NCBI RefSeq assembly: GCF_003574315.2
Contig: NZ_AP025739.1
Coordinates: 1,860,001 to 1,924,000 of the forward strand
Reading direction: 5' to 3'
DNA from: Capsulimonas corticalis
GTDB taxonomy: Bacteria > Armatimonadota > Armatimonadia > Armatimonadales > Capsulimonadaceae
DNA length: 64,000 bases
Shown: one piece after another, positions 56,486-64,000 of the stretch
How the letters are laid out: each line of letters opens with the position of its first letter
Position numbering within the stretch: the stretch's first letter is position 1
Notes under the pieces: generated by a model
Seen by the model: the letters and a program-made list of their open reading frames with translations, nothing else
Database searches by the model: none
What the model was told of the DNA's origin: nothing
Made by a program: the position numbers and the translations under genes

Positions 56486-57583
56486 GTGCAAACCATTTCC
56501 CCATCTTCCACAAAACCCGCCGCGCTCGACTTCTTCGCCGGCGGCGGCCTCGCGTCCGAAGGGCTGAAATCTCAGTTCGATGTCGTTTGGGCCAATGACT
56601 TTGCGCCCAAAAAGGCGCTGGTCTATCAGGCGAACCATCCCGGGCATCTGCATGTCGGGCCGATCCAGGAGGTTCGCGGCGGCGATCTGCCGGCGGCGGC
56701 GCTCGCGTGGGCGAGTTTTCCGTGCCAGGATCTCTCGCTCGCCGGGCGGATGCTTGGCATGCACTCCGGGACGCGCAGCGGGCTGGTGTGGGAGTGGCTG
56801 CGTATCCTGGGCGAGCTGCGGGAGCGTCCGCCGGTGGTGGTCGCGGAAAACGTCTCCGGGCTGCTGTCCTCCGAGGGCGGCGCGCATTTTCGAATGCTGC
56901 ACGCGGCTTTGAGCGATCTGGGATATCGGGTCGGCGCGCTGGCGCTGGACGCCGCGCGCTGGCTGCCGCAGTCCCGCCCGCGCGTTTTTGTCGTCGGCGC
57001 CCGCCGCGACTTGGACACCAAGGCTTTGGAAGCCCTGGACGCATCCTGGGCCCACTCCGAGGCGGTGCGGCGCGTGTCGGACACGGACGGCTGGGTCTGG
57101 TGGGACTTGCCCGAACCGCCCCAGCGCACGGTGCGCCTGTCCAGCCTCATCGATCGTGACGCGCCGGTCCACGCCGATGCCCGGGCGGCCCATGCGTTGA
57201 GCCTGCTTTCGGACCGCCACCGGCGAAAGCTGTCGGCGCTGGCGAATGGCGATATTGTACCCGGCTACCGCCGTGTCCGCGATGGCCGGCAGGTATTGGA
57301 GCTGCGCTTTGACGGCGTGGCGGGATGCCTGCGCACGCCGAGCGGCGGCAGCAGCCGGCAGGTGATCGTGATCCGCCGGGGCGATGAGTTTCAGACGCGT
57401 CTGCTCACCGTGCGTGAGGCCGCGCGCCTGATGGGCGCGCCGGAGACCTATCAGATTCCGGGATCGTACAATGATGGGTATAAGGCCATGGGCGACGCCG
57501 TCGCGGTTCCGGTCGTGGAGCATCTCGCGCGGCATCTGCTCGCGTCGCTCGCACGGATCGCGAACGTGGTGACCCCGAGGTAA
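56486..57583 (+). CDS. DNA (cytosine-5) methyltransferase
   Basis: A 365-residue C5-methylase. Motif I DFFAGGGLASEGL (15-27), motif IV FPCQDLSLAG with the catalytic Cys80, motif VI ENVSG (121-125), motif VIII QSRPRVF and motifs IX/X RLMGAPETYQIPG and GDAVAVPV appear in the usual order. The target-recognition region (about 185-290) cannot be read for specificity. Next to a vsr gene it forms the Dcm-Vsr pair, in which Vsr repairs T:G mismatches left by deamination of methylcytosine. It starts at GTG 56486, with a TATCCT seven bases upstream and no ribosome site, so leaderless translation is possible. No restriction nuclease is adjacent. Confidence 0.9.
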   Translation: MQTISPSSTKPAALDFFAGGGLASEGLKSQFDVVWANDFAPKKALVYQANHPGHLHVGPIQEVRGGDLPAAALAWASFPCQDLSLAGRMLGMHSGTRSGLVWEWLRILGELRERPPVVVAENVSGLLSSEGGAHFRMLHAALSDLGYRVGALALDAARWLPQSRPRVFVVGARRDLDTKALEALDASWAHSEAVRRVSDTDGWVWWDLPEPPQRTVRLSSLIDRDAPVHADARAAHALSLLSDRHRRKLSALANGDIVPGYRRVRDGRQVLELRFDGVAGCLRTPSGGSSRQVIVIRRGDEFQTRLLTVREAARLMGAPETYQIPGSYNDGYKAMGDAVAVPVVEHLARHLLASLARIANVVTPR

Positions 57584-57609
57584 ACAACGCCGCGCCTTTG
57601 AGGTAAACC

Positions 57610-58029
57610 ATGACGGACACGATCTCTCCCGAAGAGCGCAGCGCGGTGATGCGGCAGGTCAAGTCCAAGAACACCAAGCCTGAGATGCAGATCCGCTCGC
57701 GGCTGCACCGGCGCGGCTATCGCTTTCGCCTGCACCGCCGCGACCTGCCCGGCGTCCCCGACCTCGTCTTTCCCAGTCGCAAAACCGTCGTCTTCATCCA
57801 CGGCTGCTTCTGGCACGGCCACCCCTGCAAGCGCGGCCAGCGCCCGCCGGCGACCAACGCCGAGTACTGGCGCGCCAAGATCGCCCGCAACGAAGCGCGC
57901 GACACGGTCAACCTGCAAAAGCTCGCGGAGCTGGGGTGGAAGGCGATTGTGATCTGGGAGTGCGAGATGAAGCTGATCGACGCCGCAATCGACCGGCTGG
58001 CGGCGGAGCTGGATGGGAATAAAGCCTAA
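57610..58029 (+). CDS. vsr: Very short patch repair endonuclease
   Basis: A 139-residue Vsr nuclease that nicks beside T:G mismatches at methylated sites. Markers are RSAVMRQVKSKNTKPEM, LHRRGYRFRLHRRDLPGVPDLVF with the catalytic Asp, FIHGCFWHGHPCKRG (zinc-binding His/Cys), TNAEYWRAKI and the final VIWECEM. It starts 26 bases after the methylase stop in the same orientation and should be co-transcribed with it. Confidence 0.94.
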   Translation: MTDTISPEERSAVMRQVKSKNTKPEMQIRSRLHRRGYRFRLHRRDLPGVPDLVFPSRKTVVFIHGCFWHGHPCKRGQRPPATNAEYWRAKIARNEARDTVNLQKLAELGWKAIVIWECEMKLIDAAIDRLAAELDGNKA

Positions 58030-58305: not shown

Positions 58306-61089
58306 TCACCCCACCCGCAAATCCCTCACCAAATCTCCCCGCCGCAGATCGACCACCAGCAGCCGCCCCCGGTCGTCCCCAATCGTCACATTCTCCAAGC
58401 CGACGCGCGCCGAGACGGTTTTCGCGCCGTTCAGATGGATTCGCAGGCGTACTGTCAGGGTCTTTGTGTCGAGCAGGCGGCAGCAGACGCCGTTCTCAGT
58501 GGATGTAGAGGCGACGATCCATTCGTCTGAGAGAGCAATGTGCAGCGGCTTATTCTCCTTATGGAAGAACACTTGACGCGTAAGTTGCGGAATGCCGGAG
58601 CCGGACGATTCGTAGAGTGCTAAGGCGGTCGAAAAGACGTCGGCGGAGTCGTCCGTTGGCAGTTGGATTCGCAGCTCCGCGATGCTTCCGCTGGGCGCGA
58701 CCACGCGGCGCAGATCGACATAGCCCATCGCTGGCTGTGGGATTTCCGGCCGCGCGCGCAGGCTCAGAGCGGGGAGTGCGAGCAGCCAGCGCTGCCAGAG
58801 TTCGTGTTCGAGCGGTTTTGGAACTCCCCACGGATCGACATCTTCCGTGACGCGCACGAGGAACGAGCAGGCGGCGGCGCTGCGGGCGATCTGTGTGATG
58901 CGGCCCGGGATATTGGGGGTGCGCCAGAGGGCTTTGTAGTCGTCGGCCAGCGCGTCGATCGCGAGGAAGTCGGTTCCTTCGGCGACAAACCAGAGGGATC
59001 CGTCGTAGCTCTTTGCCCAGGAATCGAGGCGGACATCGCGCCAGGAGCGGGCGGTGCGCTGGAGGAAGTCCAGGCGGGCGAGGTGCACGGCGTCGCCGCG
59101 CGGGGCGAGCGCGAGGGCGCGGTCGCCGCTGTCCGAGAGGACCAGCCGGTGCGCGGGCTGATCGAAATGCGCGACCGTGCGGCCATCGCGGGCGAGCATC
59201 CGGGCGCCGGCTTCGCCGAGCGCAGCGACGCAGCGGCCGTCCGGAAGCCAGGCGGCGTCCAGCACCGGCAGCGCGCCGGTGTCGGCGGCGTCGATCGTGA
59301 TTTCCAGAGCCGTCGTTCGCTCCGCGAGGCGCGGGCGCGGGCTGAGGGGCGCCGGCGGCGAGTCGGCTTTCAGCGCGCCATCGCCCGAGAACTGCACGAG
59401 TTTTGCCAGCCACGCCGGGGCGAGCGCGATGGATCCCTCGGCGGCGTCTTCGATCAGGGCGCGAGTGGCGGCGCGGGTGAGCGCGGACGCCGCCGGGGTG
59501 CGGGATTCCTTGATCAAGCTTTCGGCGAAGGCCAGACGCGCCGCAGCCAGTTCGGCGTCGCCGCCCAGCAGCGCCTGAGCGCGTTCGCGGACGTCCGGGA
59601 AGGAGTCCGGCTCCAGCGCGAGCCGCCGCGCCAGCATCCGAGCGGCGGGCGCGCCGCCCAGCTCCAGCACGCGCCGGATCCATTCGTGTGTCAGCGCCCG
59701 GCCTTCGGGGACCGGCCACGCGATATCGACGGCGGCGGAGTAGTCGCCCTGGCCCGCGAGCGTCCCCGCCCAGACCATGCGTAATGTGTGGCCATGCTTT
59801 TTGTCCGTGCGCTCCAGCCGCGTGACGGCGTCGGCGAACGCGCCCGTGCGCCGCGCAATCTCGGCGGCTCGGCCGGCGTCGCCGGCCAGGAACCATTGGC
59901 GCACGATCAGCCCCGGCGGCAGCTCGCGCGCCTCCGCCATCTCCGCCGCCAGTCGAAGGCGTCCGTGGCGCTCCAGAAAGGCGACGGCCTCTTCGTTGGC
60001 GTGCAGCAGCTCCGCGAGGACAAACGCGGCCTCATCGATCCGCCCCGCCGCCTCCAGCCGCGCGAACGCGCTTCGATAGATCTGCTGGAGATTTTCGTAG
60101 AGGTTCACGCCGAGGCCCAGCGCGGAGCCCGGGGCGTTCTGGCCGGGACGGATTTGCAGCGAGTCGCGGCGGCTGGGAAGGCCGAACGCCGGCCAGGGGT
60201 TGCTGGCCCCGCCATCGGCGCCGGCGAGCGGCAGGGCGTGCCGGAGCGCTTCCGCGAAATCCCCTTGCTCGAACATTCGTATCATCTTCGAAAGATAACG
60301 CGCCTGCCGCACGCCGAAGACCTGCCCCAGCTTTGTCATACGGAGGAACTGATTGAGAAATCGCCCGAGCCACTCCGGCGGTGTGGGACTTGCAGCAGTA
60401 TTGCGCGCGCCTGATCCCCCGGAAGCGGCCCCTGCCCCGGCGCCGAAAGCAGCCAACAGCAGGGTGAGGGGATTGAAAAGATTCCCGAATATCGCCCCCA
60501 GCGATTGCGTCCCGATGGCCGCCGGCGTCTGCGCTTCCTTCGCGGCGAAGCTTGCCCGAAGCCGCATCAATACGGACAGCATGTCCGGCGACGGGGCGGG
60601 AATGCCGCCCAGCTGCCGGCGAGCGTCGAAAGCGGCGGCTTCCGTGAACATCTGCGGCGGCGCGAGAGGCGCGCCGAGGGTTTGGACGGTCATTACCGGC
60701 CAGTCAGAGACATCAAGCCACGCCGCCGGATCGGTCCTCGTGTCCTCCGTCAGCGCGTGCAGCGTCGTCACGCCGTCCTGGATCCGGCAAAAGCTGCGCG
60801 GCGGCGGCGCGATCTCTTCCCACTCGTCGGAGGTCAGCGGCGATCCGGTCAGCACATCGTCGCGCAGCGTGAGCGGCAGCCCGGGTGTCCGGCGGCAGTC
60901 GATCTCCCGCGCGTGCGCCCAGCGCAAGAGGAGCCCGCCCGCGACGGCGTGAACCGTCGCGCCCGGCTCCCAGAGCGCGAGCACGCGACGGCGCGCCTCG
61001 GGCTCGCCGAGCAGGGCAAAGTCAAAGAATAACCCGATGGCGTCGATGACGCCTTGATGGACAAGCGCGCGCGGCTTCACAAGATTCAT
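58306..61089 (-). CDS. bpX6-like protein with helical repeats and C-terminal beta-propeller
   Basis: A 927-residue soluble protein. The N-terminal 90 residues (VIDAIGLFFDFALLGEPEARRRVLALWEPGATV, then GGLLLRW and CRRTPGLPL) fit the bpX6 domain of MoxR-vWA-beta-propeller ternary systems as I recall it. Residues about 330-620 are TPR/HEAT-like helices (YRSAFARLEAAGRIDEAAFVLAELL). The last 290 residues are beta-propeller blades (VLDAAWLPDGRCVAALGEAG, then LSDSGDRALALAPRG). It overlaps the upstream gene by four bases (ATGA), so translation is coupled. It is probably a large scaffold or effector of an NTP-dependent conflict system. Confidence 0.65.
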   Translation of the reverse strand: MNLVKPRALVHQGVIDAIGLFFDFALLGEPEARRRVLALWEPGATVHAVAGGLLLRWAHAREIDCRRTPGLPLTLRDDVLTGSPLTSDEWEEIAPPPRSFCRIQDGVTTLHALTEDTRTDPAAWLDVSDWPVMTVQTLGAPLAPPQMFTEAAAFDARRQLGGIPAPSPDMLSVLMRLRASFAAKEAQTPAAIGTQSLGAIFGNLFNPLTLLLAAFGAGAGAASGGSGARNTAASPTPPEWLGRFLNQFLRMTKLGQVFGVRQARYLSKMIRMFEQGDFAEALRHALPLAGADGGASNPWPAFGLPSRRDSLQIRPGQNAPGSALGLGVNLYENLQQIYRSAFARLEAAGRIDEAAFVLAELLHANEEAVAFLERHGRLRLAAEMAEARELPPGLIVRQWFLAGDAGRAAEIARRTGAFADAVTRLERTDKKHGHTLRMVWAGTLAGQGDYSAAVDIAWPVPEGRALTHEWIRRVLELGGAPAARMLARRLALEPDSFPDVRERAQALLGGDAELAAARLAFAESLIKESRTPAASALTRAATRALIEDAAEGSIALAPAWLAKLVQFSGDGALKADSPPAPLSPRPRLAERTTALEITIDAADTGALPVLDAAWLPDGRCVAALGEAGARMLARDGRTVAHFDQPAHRLVLSDSGDRALALAPRGDAVHLARLDFLQRTARSWRDVRLDSWAKSYDGSLWFVAEGTDFLAIDALADDYKALWRTPNIPGRITQIARSAAACSFLVRVTEDVDPWGVPKPLEHELWQRWLLALPALSLRARPEIPQPAMGYVDLRRVVAPSGSIAELRIQLPTDDSADVFSTALALYESSGSGIPQLTRQVFFHKENKPLHIALSDEWIVASTSTENGVCCRLLDTKTLTVRLRIHLNGAKTVSARVGLENVTIGDDRGRLLVVDLRRGDLVRDLRVG

Positions 61090-62927
61090 GAGGCGCCTCC
61101 GCCCGGCGCCAGCCGATACAAAATCGCCTCATGCTCCAGCGAATAGATGATGACCTCGCCGTTTGTCGTCGAATACGCGATGATCGGCGCCGCGTGGCTG
61201 ACCGTGACATGCTCGATCGGCGCGTCCGCAATCGGCAGGACATGCGACCAGGAGGCTCCCAGCACCCGGAGCCGCCGCGCGCCCGGCTCCAGCAGAACCA
61301 GCGCCGGCGTTTGATAGCGTCGCGTGGCGATCACTCCGACAACACGGCACTCGGGAATCGCTTTGAGCGAGAGTTCCGCACTATTGGTGAGCACGCTCCA
61401 ATAACCATCGCCTTTATATGCGGCGACCAATCCGTAACGCTCGTTTCCGAGCGCCGACGCATATCCCATGAAAAGACCGGGCGAATTGTCGTCCGTCGCG
61501 CCGGGGATGTTCTGAGGCGTCCGTTCGCTGCCGTCGAGGGCGACGCTCCAGCCGTCTTTCGCTTGCAGTCCACAGAGGATATGATGGGGAGTATTGAGCG
61601 TGGCGAGAAATACGGCTCCGTTGTAGATGGGATTGAGGTGCGCGCCTTTGGCGTCTTTGTAAAGCGTGGCGATGGAGCAGCGCCCCGGCATGCGGATATT
61701 GCCGGGCAGGCCAATCACTAGCCGGGAGCCGGCGGGATTGCTCTGCGGCGTGGCGAAGCATGGCGATAGCGGCGGATTGACAGCGTCGTCCAGCGCTTTT
61801 TGGTAACCTACATCGATGGGATAAGCGCCGACGGCAACGCCGGCGTTTTTGCCGCCGATGCATGACACAAGCAACGCATCGCCGTTACCGGGGCGGGTGA
61901 TGATGACGTAAGCCTTGCCGATGCGTCCCGCCGCCAAAATCGTGGTTTTGGTGTGTGAGGGAAATGCAGTGTAGTGTTTCGGATATCCTGGGCCTGAGCG
62001 CGGCGAATTCGGGACAGGGTAGGCGATGAGGCCGCCGTCGTGCGCACGCGCGATCAGTTTGCTGCCGCTTGCCGTGAACAGCAGGTTGGACGCCGGGGCG
62101 ACGTGCGCTTGAGGCTTGGTGGGCGCGGCGACGGCGGTGGCGAACGGATCGCGCAGGAGACGCGCGCAGAGCGCGTCGGCAGGCAGATCCAGCACGACAT
62201 GGGCGTCGGCCCGGCCGGCGCGGTGGACATGCGCCGAGATTTGATGGGTCTCGGGATCCAGTTCGTCCCGCACTTCCACGCCGCTGGCGCCGTCCCGTGC
62301 GGCCAGCCGGGCGAGGCGGGCGCCGCCGATGGCCCAGAAATCGTCCACGTCGCTTTGGGCCGTCGCACGCTCGCGCCACTGGTGCCACATCTCGGAGGTG
62401 GGCGGCTGCGATGATCGGGCCAAGAGAAGCGCCCGGATACTCGATTCCGTCAGACCGACCTCCGGCTCCATGTCGGGCCGCTGTACGATCGCCCACTCAA
62501 ACCGCGCCTTCGCCGCCTCGGCGCGGCGGGCAAGGGCGATCAGCAGCGCGAGATGCGCGATGCGCGGCCCGCCGATCTGGCTCGGGCCGGCGTCGAACAA
62601 GGCGAAGGAGACCCGTCCGCCGGTCCGGGTGCGGCGGGCAAGCTGTAAGAATCCGTGCTCGCCCATCGCCGCGCGGCGCAGAAACTCGTCGGGCGCGTCG
62701 TCGGCGAGGAGCCATTCGGAGAGAAGAAGACGGTCGTAGGGGCCGCGCCGGCCGATGTCCGAAAAGCCGTCGGGGTCGCCCTCGTCCACGCGGTCATGCG
62801 TGCGCATCGGGCCAATCGCGGCGTCGAGTCGCTGGGCGAGCGGCGCGAGCGCGGCGGCCAGATCGTCGGGAAAGAGATTCAGGTGCGGAGCCCAGGACGC
62901 CAGCGCGGCGGGGAGAGCAATCGTCAT
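61086..62927 (-). CDS. vWA-like plus beta-propeller protein of the bpX system
   Basis: A 613-residue soluble protein. Residues about 100-155 contain FALFDAGPSQIGGPRIAHLALLIAL, in which Asp112-Ala-Gly-Pro-Ser116 resembles a variant MIDAS of a von Willebrand A domain. It continues with FEWAIVQRP. From about 280 to the end it has propeller-like repeats (LLFTASGSKLIARAHDGGLIAYPV and AAPIIAYSTTNGEVIIYSLEHEAILYRL near the C-terminus). It overlaps both neighbours by four bases. The fusion or pairing of vWA with a beta-propeller next to a MoxR gene is the definition of the ternary system. Exact domain names need a profile search. Confidence 0.6.
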   Translation of the reverse strand: MTIALPAALASWAPHLNLFPDDLAAALAPLAQRLDAAIGPMRTHDRVDEGDPDGFSDIGRRGPYDRLLLSEWLLADDAPDEFLRRAAMGEHGFLQLARRTRTGGRVSFALFDAGPSQIGGPRIAHLALLIALARRAEAAKARFEWAIVQRPDMEPEVGLTESSIRALLLARSSQPPTSEMWHQWRERATAQSDVDDFWAIGGARLARLAARDGASGVEVRDELDPETHQISAHVHRAGRADAHVVLDLPADALCARLLRDPFATAVAAPTKPQAHVAPASNLLFTASGSKLIARAHDGGLIAYPVPNSPRSGPGYPKHYTAFPSHTKTTILAAGRIGKAYVIITRPGNGDALLVSCIGGKNAGVAVGAYPIDVGYQKALDDAVNPPLSPCFATPQSNPAGSRLVIGLPGNIRMPGRCSIATLYKDAKGAHLNPIYNGAVFLATLNTPHHILCGLQAKDGWSVALDGSERTPQNIPGATDDNSPGLFMGYASALGNERYGLVAAYKGDGYWSVLTNSAELSLKAIPECRVVGVIATRRYQTPALVLLEPGARRLRVLGASWSHVLPIADAPIEHVTVSHAAPIIAYSTTNGEVIIYSLEHEAILYRLAPGGGAS

Positions 62928-63367
62928 CGAGTCTCCTCATGTTGCAGCCACCGCGCCAGCGATTCCCGCGCCACCGTCCGGGCGGCGGACAGCGACGCCA
63001 GCGCCGGCCAATCCGGGATCAGCGCCATCGGCGGCTTGACGTCGGGAGCGCGCAGCGCCATCGCCCCGGCGAGCAGGGCAACCGGGATACTGGGAGCCAG
63101 CATCGTCGGAATCAGCAGCTCCGCCGCCATGGGATCACGCCCCAAATACACAACCCCGTCCGCCCACGGCAGACTCTCGGTGGGTCCCATCAGAATCAGG
63201 AACCCGTCCCCGGCCACGCCCGTCAGCGTCGCCAGCGCTTCCTCGGAAGAGGCCAGCAGACGCTGCGCAATTGCACACGCCGCCACGCCCGACGCGGCCA
63301 CGGCGACGGGCTCCAGAGGTGTGGCGCGCGAGCGCCAGGTGATGGGGAATAGAGTATTGGCGTTCAT
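62924..63367 (-). CDS. bpX5-like small protein
   Basis: A 147-residue soluble protein from MNANTLFPITW. The segment SLPWADGVVYLGRDPMAAELLIPTMLAPSIPVALL, followed by PMALIPDWPALASLSAARTVARESLARWL, fits the bpX5 domain of MoxR-vWA-beta-propeller systems as I remember it. The frame is open to 63433, but those extra codons lie inside the class D repeat element and are not needed. It overlaps the next gene by four bases. Likely an adaptor between the MoxR ATPase and the vWA protein. Confidence 0.6.
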   Translation of the reverse strand: MNANTLFPITWRSRATPLEPVAVAASGVAACAIAQRLLASSEEALATLTGVAGDGFLILMGPTESLPWADGVVYLGRDPMAAELLIPTMLAPSIPVALLAGAMALRAPDVKPPMALIPDWPALASLSAARTVARESLARWLQHEETR

Positions 63368-63400
63368 AGGATCGGTGTTTTGTGCTTTCAGCACATGCCT

Positions 63401-63542
63401 GGCGAATGAATTCGCGGCTAAAAGTACGGCCACCCGCCTGCGCGGGTTCAGATTTTACGCCGCAGGCGCTTATCTTATATGCCGTAGGCTCCGAAGTCCG
63501 CGAAGGCGGACGGCCGTACTTTTAGCCGCGAATTTATTCGCC
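63401..63542. repeat. Class D palindromic intergenic element (between MoxR-like and bpX5-like genes)
   Basis: A 142-base element with 31-base terminal inverted repeats (GGCGAATGAATTCGCGGCTA at 63401, inverted copy ending 63542) differing at one base. The interior has hairpins such as CCCGCCTGCGCGGG, the same core type as in class C. It separates the ATPase gene from the rest of its operon. Confidence 0.8.
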
Positions 63543-63576
63543 GGCCTTCTTACATGTCCCTCCGTCGCGCCTCGCA

Positions 63577-64000
63577 TTATTCCGCGTTCACCGTCGCGCC
63601 GCTGACTGCCGTCAGCGGCGTCGCTTCAAGAGTGGCGACGATCTCGGCGCGGACGCCGATGAGGTCGGGCGGCAGGGATTCGCGCGCGAAGCCGGCGTCG
63701 ATCTCTCGGGCGACGCCTTCGAGCGCCAGCCGGCGGCGTTCGGCGGCGCGGAGGTCGTCCGGGGCGGCGTGCTCGGCGAGGATGCGACGGCCGGCGTCGA
63801 CGAGACGCGCGGCGCGGGCGAGCGGGCCGAGGGAGGCGGCTTCGGCGGCGGTCTTTAGCGTGGCGTTCTCGGTCTTGTCCAGCAGCGCGCGCAGGGTTTG
63901 GCGCGCAATCTCTTGAGTCTCGGCGGTCGGCGTCGCCAGAACGATCGGCCAGAGGTCCGCTTCGGTCGGCTGCGTGCGGCCGGCGACCACGGCGGCGGCC
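63577..64000 (-). CDS. C-terminal part of a MoxR-type AAA+ ATPase (5' truncated by window)
   Basis: The frame is open to the window edge, so only the last 140 residues are visible. AAAVVAGRTQPTEADLWPIVLATP looks like the lid region of a MoxR AAA+ ATPase, where the segment G-R---T--DL normally ends the fold. It continues as a long helical tail (ETQEIARQTLRALL and LARAARLVDAGRRIL). The Walker motifs lie outside the window. Position upstream of bpX5-like, vWA and bpX6-like genes on the same strand supports the MoxR assignment. A GTG at 63990 is not a real start. Confidence 0.6.
   Translation of the reverse strand, partial: AAAVVAGRTQPTEADLWPIVLATPTAETQEIARQTLRALLDKTENATLKTAAEAASLGPLARAARLVDAGRRILAEHAAPDDLRAAERRRLALEGVAREIDAGFARESLPPDLIGVRAEIVATLEATPLTAVSGATVNAE

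What the first reader, a model, noticed from the sequence alone, without database searches (positions are those of the whole stretch)
58306..64000. Operon resembling a MoxR-vWA-beta-propeller (bpX) ternary conflict system
Four same-strand genes, three linked by 4-base overlaps, encode the end of a MoxR-like AAA+ ATPase, a bpX5-like protein, a vWA-like/beta-propeller protein with a variant MIDAS (DAGPS) and a 927-residue bpX6-like/TPR/beta-propeller protein. Such systems were predicted computationally as NTP-dependent conflict systems enriched in morphologically complex bacteria. As far as I know they have no demonstrated mechanism. This is the best candidate here for a poorly described biological system.
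Basis: partly seen in the sequence, partly recalled or inferred. Interest (0 to 1): 0.78.

Follow-up and report, generated by a model that had tools for sequence, protein, structure and literature searches.

The report
AAA+ ATPase and beta-propeller protein machine
A four-gene bacterial operon encodes a probable ATP-driven protein machine with two fast-changing propeller-shaped proteins; it belongs to a predicted but untested group of "conflict systems", and the evidence here supports the machine but not, so far, a role in defence.

Summary
A same-strand cassette, MoxR–bpX5–"vWA"/propeller–bpX6, runs from window 58306 past the edge. MoxR is bpMoxR (284 bits), bpX5 80, bpX6 119. It is a new member, in an Armatimonadota genome, of the MoxR-vWA-beta-propeller ternary systems of Kaur et al. 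2020. The four genes keep this order in 70 of 80 relatives; the other 10 are cut by contig ends. AlphaFold models give a propeller in the "vWA" protein, and an N-terminal domain, alpha-solenoid and WD40-type propeller in bpX6. The "variant MIDAS" is a family motif, D-x-G-P-x-Q-x-G-x-P-R: none of 71 has DxSxS, and vWA identity was not shown. The propellers and a disordered linker diverge fastest; the N-terminal domain of bpX6 does not. The bpX6 propeller has a conserved and a hypervariable sector at the same place in three sets of genomes. No effector domain was found in the window's proteins, and Pseudomonas flanks hold no excess of defence genes over random regions. Best reading: a RavA-like AAA+ remodelling machine whose propellers recognise a changing ligand. 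Whether that is a phage, a rival or a client is open. Membership is supported; the conflict role is not shown.

The parts
63577..64000 (-). 3' part of the MoxR-family AAA+ ATPase gene (395 aa in all; the 5' part lies outside the window, to genome position 1924764)
   Evidence: PF20030 bpMoxR 284.1 bits; ORF L007:8578-9765; closest solved structure RavA, E 8.3e-53
63400..63545 (.). Dispersed palindromic element (about 142-146 bp, long hairpin) between moxR and bpX5
   Evidence: RNA fold of 63400-63576 -99.5 kcal/mol, z -8.1; 68 matches in the same genome counting both orientations and fragments, best other copy 95% identical over 146 bp; the sister genome G134 has a different sequence at this junction
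62924..63367 (-). bpX5 protein (147 aa from ATG 63367; the longest ORF begins at GTG 63433, inside the palindrome arm)
   Evidence: PF19921 80.4 bits; found in all 70 complete cassettes among 80 loci; start read from the sequence
61086..62927 (-). 'vWA' component, 613 aa: N-terminal helical region with invariant E81/R84/R85/E90, alpha/beta domain with D-x-G-P-x-Q-x-G-x-P-R motif in place of a MIDAS, C-terminal beta-propeller (272-611)
   Evidence: AlphaFold model mean pLDDT 86.3; propeller VIA Z 13.8 vs Hsv2; profile hits to WD40 repeats; motif counts
58306..61089 (-). bpX6 protein, 927 aa: N-terminal alpha/beta domain (13-124), low-confidence linker (187-208 and 215-236 under pLDDT 50), alpha-solenoid (239-576), WD40-type propeller (about 590-925)
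   Evidence: PF19922 119 bits at 7-174; AlphaFold model mean pLDDT 86.6; propeller VIA Z 21.6
57610..58029 (+). Neighbour, not part of the cassette: Vsr-type nicking endonuclease, convergent with bpX6
   Evidence: PF03852 105.3 bits
56486..57583 (+). Neighbour, not part of the cassette: C5-cytosine DNA methyltransferase
   Evidence: PF00145 161.4 bits

Best explanation
The operon encodes a cytosolic four-protein AAA+ remodelling machine of the RavA/MoxR type. Inferred mechanism: a MoxR ring works on the helical/alpha-beta N-terminal part of the 613-aa adaptor, which carries a conserved site of its own instead of a MIDAS. bpX5 is a fixed core subunit. bpX6 is a scaffold whose solenoid and the conserved half of its propeller hold the complex together. 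The hypervariable sector of the bpX6 propeller, and probably the fast-evolving propeller of the adaptor, bind a changing ligand or client. Binding licenses ATP-driven rearrangement of the complex. Shown: gene set, order, domain structure (models), motifs and the pattern of divergence. Inferred: ring, contacts, ligand recognition and output.
For: Order MoxR-bpX5-vWA-bpX6 in 70 of 80 loci, the other 10 cut by contig ends, and in 18 of 19 Pseudomonas loci (17 intact, one with split genes; in the nineteenth bpX5 was not detected; three of these contigs are also among the 80): one unit. No neighbour family recurs at a fixed place beyond groups of close relatives among the 25 largest neighbour clusters. 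MoxR is nearest to RavA. Propellers in both large subunits. Mean identities over 64 loci: MoxR 0.64, vWA helical part 0.49, bpX5 0.41, solenoid 0.41, vWA domain 0.40, bpX6 N domain 0.34, bpX6 propeller 0.30, bpX6 linker 0.23, vWA propeller 0.21. In the myxobacterial-type loci the vWA propeller is less identical than a syntenic beta-propeller gene in 55 of 55 pairs. bpX6 propeller, sector 610-729 versus 790-889: 0.68/0.28 in the myxobacterial-type set, where the bins were chosen, then 0.66/0.34 in Pseudomonas and 0.37/0.14 in the rest; contrast between 100-residue windows 0.41 versus 0.21 for the control propeller. Divergences of the two propellers correlate with MoxR held constant (r 0.50).
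Against: No contact, ring or ligand was observed. Fast divergence may be relaxed constraint: I have no proof of positive selection, and NG86 omega values are inflated in these GC-rich genes (a control gene reaches 0.68, the vWA propeller 0.77). The bpX6 linker is as variable as the propellers. Sector contrast is not unique to the bpX6 propeller: the bpX6 solenoid shows 0.33 and the vWA N-terminal part 0.30. The sector pattern of the vWA propeller is weak (shift test 19 of 309, 86 of 283 and 25 of 303), and the bpX6 shift-test rates are modest (10 of 303, 8 of 301, 13 of 306). Partial correlations beyond MoxR are positive for all 28 domain pairs (0.10-0.52), the highest being vWA domain with bpX6 solenoid, so they single out the two propellers only weakly.
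Confidence: 0.5

Rival explanations
1. It is a true conflict (anti-phage or anti-element) system as Kaur et al. predicted: a propeller senses an invader, MoxR switches the complex, and bpX6 acts as effector by scaffolding, containment or membrane action.
For: Family-level prediction (Kaur 2020, sections 8 and 22 and part 1 of section 35 read). Patchy occurrence: 10 of 251 genomes in the phylum, 19 of 298 in the genus of Pseudomonas gingeri, these in 11 different chromosomal contexts. Found in a region of genome plasticity unique to P. syringae clade 2b-a (PMC9677677, section 9 read). Fast-evolving propellers and a variable linker behind the bpX6 N-terminal domain. A Vsr/C5-methyltransferase pair beside it in this genome. 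In a related system a diversified domain on the vWA protein was proposed as antigen sensor (PMC10907252, passages seen).
Against: No excess of defence families in Pseudomonas flanks at E<=1e-10: 8 families among 125 proteins versus 11 among 124 from random regions. Flanks in other phyla: 71 families among 148 proteins, the 25 listed matching one or two proteins each; no matched control. No PADLOC model at E<=0.01 for bpX5, bpX6 or the 613-aa protein. bpX6 query: no match in 50,697 phage records and 2 of 72,556 plasmid records, both megabase-sized. MoxR and adaptor queries: no confirmed relative in viral contigs. Same upstream neighbour in 17 of 22 myxobacterial-type loci. N-terminal bpX6 domain not hypervariable; membrane-strength linker segment in only 16 of 65.
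Confidence: 0.3
2. It is a dedicated assembly or repair chaperone for a cellular complex, like RavA-ViaA or NorQ-NorD (the latter recalled), needed under some stress; the propellers bind the client.
For: RavA is the nearest solved relative (E 8.3e-53). Constant four-gene set without an effector domain in the window's proteins. Same upstream neighbour in 17 of 22 myxobacterial-type loci; the MoxR tree groups rows by phylum far better than shuffles (15 changes versus 35.3).
Against: No client gene is kept beside the cassette beyond groups of close relatives. Patchy occurrence. Client-binding propellers would be expected to be conserved, but they are among the fastest-diverging parts.
Confidence: 0.35
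3. Social or kin conflict: the propellers recognise proteins of competing bacteria or of siblings, mainly in myxobacteria and other soil bacteria.
For: 44 of 117 genomes of the order of Myxococcus xanthus, each hit in a genome of 7.9-13.5 Mb. Propellers diverge fast. A TsiV-family (type VI immunity) gene lies between MoxR and bpX5 in one Archangium locus.
Against: No conserved membrane segment in bpX6; secretion signals were not scanned. Very close Myxococcus relatives have similar propellers (L045/L047: vWA propeller 0.91). Present in Armatimonadota and Acidobacteriota MAGs of unknown lifestyle.
Confidence: 0.1

Closest known systems
MoxR-vWA-beta-propeller ternary systems (Kaur et al. 2020, eLife 9:e52696; Pfam bpMoxR PF20030, bpX5 PF19921, bpX6 PF19922)
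   Same: Same families, P-loop of the AKS type, propeller behind the vWA-like domain, third component with solenoid and C-terminal propeller, no recognised effector domain in the window's proteins.
   Different: Here the adaptor's propeller aligns with whole propellers over 272-611 rather than 'about four blades'; a conserved membrane segment was not found; the N-terminal bpX6 domain is not the most variable part (the propellers and linker are); the window's P-loop reads GPPGAAKS (T to A). Phylum Armatimonadota is not named in the main text (0 hits for 'armatimonad'; source data not seen).
RavA-ViaA (E. coli)
   Same: RavA is the nearest solved structure to MoxR (E 8.3e-53); both are MoxR-type ATPases.
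   Different: Whether a ViaA-like or LARA-like part is present was not tested; this system adds bpX5, bpX6 and two propellers.
Cassette ravA-bpX5-6ND4-bpX6 in RGP_32 of Pseudomonas syringae clade 2b-a (PMC9677677, Table 2, section 9 read)
   Same: By the listed names it is the same four-gene set; the paper's Foldseek match for the third gene was 6ND4, and chains of 6nd4 are also among my matches for the 613-aa model.
   Different: Reported there as clade-unique genes, with no function given in the section read; the sequences were not compared here.
DGR-diversified VMAP ternary systems (PMC10907252, passages seen)
   Same: A variable recognition domain on the vWA protein next to a MoxR ATPase.
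   Different: There C-type lectin domains are diversified by a reverse transcriptase; here the propellers align almost end to end (95% aligned), so the divergence looks like ordinary substitution. I did not search for a DGR.

Membership tests
MoxR-vWA-beta-propeller ternary system (Kaur subsystem 4) | MoxR-clade AAA+ ATPase of the bpMoxR family | tested here: met
   PF20030 284.1 bits, next best in the genome 41.4
MoxR-vWA-beta-propeller ternary system (Kaur subsystem 4) | Non-canonical P-loop ending AKS (published as 'often' GXXXTAKS) | tested here: met
   GPPGAAKS in the window (AKS kept, T replaced by A); 78 of 81 MoxR sequences have G[PA]PGTAKS, 1 GPPGTGKS, 1 (L072) not matched by the pattern
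MoxR-vWA-beta-propeller ternary system (Kaur subsystem 4) | Partner with a C-terminal beta-propeller | tested here: met
   Model propeller 272-611, VIA Z 13.8, rmsd 3.9, 258 aligned
MoxR-vWA-beta-propeller ternary system (Kaur subsystem 4) | Partner has a vWA domain | tested here: inconclusive
   Model topology strand-helix-strand with Asp after the first strand fits; profile comparison with 30 stretches found by the VWA_CoxE model, some under its cut-off, was not significant (prob 0.2%, as for the MoxR control), though it placed LFDAGP under the MIDAS strand; no positive control was run; the fold search was filled by the propeller
MoxR-vWA-beta-propeller ternary system (Kaur subsystem 4) | Third component with TPR-like region and C-terminal propeller | tested here: met
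   Alpha-solenoid 239-576 and propeller 590-925; propeller VIA Z 21.6, rmsd 3.2, 274 aligned; TPR-like by sequence only weakly (E 0.14)
MoxR-vWA-beta-propeller ternary system (Kaur subsystem 4) | bpX5 and bpX6 domains | tested here: met
   80.4 and 119 bits against cut-offs of 27
MoxR-vWA-beta-propeller ternary system (Kaur subsystem 4) | Membrane-spanning segment in the third component | tested here: inconclusive
   19-residue hydropathy at least 1.6 in the linker of 16 of 65 (background: 6 of 65 in solenoid and in propeller), window 1.63
Classical vWA/MIDAS protein | DxSxS metal-binding motif | tested here: not met
   0 of 71 have DxSxS in the aligned region; D-x-G-P in 66 of 71
Anti-phage defence system (PADLOC-type) | Match to a known defence family | tested here: not met
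   No model at E<=0.01 for bpX5, bpX6 or the 613-aa protein; MoxR only mad8 at E 6.2e-4
Anti-phage defence system (PADLOC-type) | Location among other defence genes | tested here: not met
   Pseudomonas flanks like random regions; other phyla few hits, no matched control; in this genome a Vsr/methyltransferase pair does lie beside it
Anti-phage defence system (PADLOC-type) | Protection against phage | not testable with these tools
   Needs challenge assays
RavA-ViaA | RavA-like AAA+ module | tested here: met
   PDB RavA E 8.3e-53 over profile positions 11-268
RavA-ViaA | LARA domain in RavA (recalled) and ViaA partner | not tested
   The match ends at position 268; no ViaA search was made

The most novel reading that the evidence does not exclude
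The bpX6 propeller is a two-faced receptor: a conserved sector (about 610-729) docks in an AAA+ machine, and a hypervariable sector (about 790-889) is a diversifying binding surface at the same place in distant genomes. With the fast-changing adaptor propeller it would make a cytosolic recognition device, comparable in logic to APAF-1/NLR sensors but driven by a MoxR ring and a site that has replaced the MIDAS.
Probability: 0.25. Interest if true: 0.75.

Novelty: new member of a known kind. Interest (0 to 1): 0.45.

Why it matters
These systems were predicted in 2020; my literature searches turned up no experimental study of them (openly licensed PMC papers only). This work gives a fixed four-gene unit, a family motif where a MIDAS was assumed, and a named variable surface on bpX6. 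These are direct targets for mutants and pull-downs, including in laboratory Pseudomonas and Myxococcus. It also warns that the 'conflict system' label for this subtype is not backed by the flanking-gene, phage-record and plasmid-record tests made here.

Tried and rejected
Chance or annotation artefact: rejected, since three Pfam families match far above cut-off and the order recurs in 70 of 80 loci.

Extra effector gene inside the operon: 10 of the 22 myxobacterial-type loci have 1.6-5 kb between MoxR and bpX5. The five insert proteins scanned gave TsiV immunity, DUF2381 and AHSA1 families and two without a family, and some lie on the other strand, so I treat the junction as a tolerant insertion site, not as an effector slot.

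Natural MoxR-bpX5 fusion in L043: not used, because the genes overlap in a close relative (L037) and the vWA gene of the same MAG is in two ORFs, so an indel error is likely.

Hypervariable N-terminal domain in bpX6: not seen; the linker behind it is variable.

Positive selection: not claimed; omega values are inflated.

vWA identity: profile comparison failed. Fold searches of both models were filled by propeller matches and leave the N-terminal domains of both proteins untested.

Neighbour genes were called by a simple codon-preference script, so neighbour lists are approximate. The first attempt to read vWA control domains used the wrong strand and was replaced.
Full report
What is there. 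The window's right end holds, on the minus strand, the end of a MoxR gene, bpX5, a 613-aa protein and a 927-aa protein. The genome continues past the window: MoxR is 395 aa, a bpMoxR family member (284.1 bits; the genome's five other matches score 41.4 or less), with Walker A GPPGAAKS and Walker B FLDEVF. bpX5 and bpX6 domains score 80.4 and 119 bits. The two downstream joints are 4-base overlaps. Between moxR and bpX5 lies a palindrome of about 146 bp (fold -99.5 kcal/mol, z -8.1) with many copies in this genome (68 matches counting both orientations and fragments), so the GTG start of bpX5 at 63433 is probably spurious and ATG 63367 (147 aa) is preferred.

The genome. It is a single 7.65-Mb contig. 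A third (21,362 bases) coincides with a MAG titled Actinomycetota. A genus name was not tested.

Relatives. A MoxR alignment found 272 relatives in named genomes, of which the best 80 were kept. MoxR-bpX5-vWA-bpX6 is complete and in order in 70 of 80; the other 10 all run into a contig end. By NCBI names they come from Myxococcota, Acidobacteriota, Pseudomonadota, Armatimonadota, Abditibacteriota, Actinomycetota, Melainabacteria and Latescibacterota. In the tree of 84 MoxR rows (quick search, many open forks) the labels need 15 changes against 35.3 when shuffled: transfer between phyla is not rampant. Frequency of bpX6: 10 of 251 genomes of the phylum, 44 of 117 in the order of Myxococcus xanthus, 19 of 298 in the genus of Pseudomonas gingeri; each set includes at least one genome chosen because it carries bpX6. 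The 19 Pseudomonas cassettes lie in 11 contexts; 17 are intact in order, one (L130) has vWA and bpX6 each in two ORFs, and in one (L143) bpX5 was not detected. A set of 22 myxobacterial-type loci (I call it Cystobacterineae, a recalled name; it includes L054, titled Comamonas) behaves otherwise: in 17 of 22 the same outer-membrane-like gene lies upstream.

Anatomy. The 613-aa model (mean pLDDT 86.3) has helices, an alpha/beta domain (about 93-260) and a propeller (272-611; VIA Z 13.8, rmsd 3.9, 258 aligned). In place of DxSxS all 71 sequences (window included) share G114, G119 and R122; D112 is kept in 69, P115 and Q117 in 67. E81, R84, R85, E90 and R135 are invariant too. The place of the second MIDAS aspartate seems to be Gly (G201 in 70 of 71), if my strand assignment is right. 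Kaur et al. noted that some vWA domains of this group lack one or both aspartates (section 8 read). Profile comparison with 30 vWA-model stretches from related genomes was not significant, and no positive control was run, so 'vWA' stays a topological guess. The bpX6 model (mean pLDDT 86.6) has a small alpha/beta domain, a low-confidence linker, an alpha-solenoid and a propeller (VIA Z 21.6, rmsd 3.2, 274 aligned). A hydrophobic stretch of membrane strength is present in the linker of 16 of 65.

Divergence. Over 64 loci MoxR is the most conserved part and the vWA propeller the least, closely followed by the bpX6 linker (0.21 and 0.23). In the myxobacterial-type loci the vWA propeller is about 40% identical, against 63% for a syntenic beta-propeller gene (PF09826) and 60-80% for four other syntenic genes; it was lower than the control propeller in 55 of 55 pairs. 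Within the bpX6 propeller, positions 610-729 are conserved and 790-889 variable. I chose these bins on the myxobacterial-type set, and they held in Pseudomonas and in the remaining loci. A same-loci control propeller shows half the contrast (0.21 versus 0.41), but the bpX6 solenoid (0.33) and the vWA N-terminal part (0.30) come closer, so the contrast is strong rather than unique. For the vWA propeller the sector pattern did not repeat clearly. All this may be relaxed constraint; selection is not shown.

Is it a defence system? Against random regions of the same Pseudomonas genomes, flanks show no more PADLOC families at E<=1e-10 (8 families among 125 proteins versus 11 among 124). In other phyla, 148 flank proteins gave 71 families, of which the 25 listed match only one or two proteins each, many being models of one family (PD-T4-6) or of helicase type; this set has no matched control. 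With bpX6 as query: 2 of 72,556 plasmid records and 0 of 50,697 phage records. With adaptor and MoxR: no confirmed relative in viral contigs. In favour of a conflict role are the patchy occurrence, the P. syringae clade-specific region (PMC9677677, section 9 read), the fast propellers, and the Vsr/methyltransferase pair beside it here. I therefore keep the conflict role as a rival at 0.3.

Literature. Kaur et al. 2020 (PMC7159879): abstract, sections 8, 22 and part 1 of 35 read, other passages seen. PMC10907252 (2024): passages seen. PMC9677677: one passage and section 9. No experimental test was found. NLR sensors, NorQ-NorD and the LARA domain are named from recall; Kaur et al. discuss APAF-1.

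Verdict. A real, well-defined cassette and a new member of a known, untested group, with two specific additions: the MIDAS-replacing motif and the conserved/variable split of the bpX6 propeller. The mechanism proposed is an inference from these.

Noticed in passing
window 63400-63545: A dispersed palindromic (MITE- or REP-like) element of about 146 bp with many copies in the genome (68 matches including both orientations and fragments; best other copy 95% identical); function and mobiliser not studied.
   Followed up: partly
L021:2680-3050: The sister genome has a different, also repeat-looking, sequence at the same moxR-bpX5 junction; the junction also carries inserted genes in 10 of 22 myxobacterial-type loci.
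   Followed up: partly
window 56486-58029: C5-cytosine methyltransferase and Vsr nicking endonuclease pair between a bioA/bioF/bioD-like cluster (named by inspection, no call) and the cassette; no restriction enzyme was looked for.
   Followed up: no
L054 and L084: Records titled Comamonas sp. KCTC 72670 and Klebsiella pneumoniae (MAG) carry cassettes that group inside Myxococcus and with an uncultured proteobacterium respectively; L054 also shares myxobacterial neighbours. Both names look doubtful.
   Followed up: partly
   Followed up: no
L041:12201-14351: An ORF without a Pfam family followed by a TsiV-family (type VI immunity) gene inserted between MoxR and bpX5 of Archangium.
   Followed up: partly
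L130: In one Pseudomonas genome vWA and bpX6 are each split into two ORFs, as if decaying.
   Followed up: no
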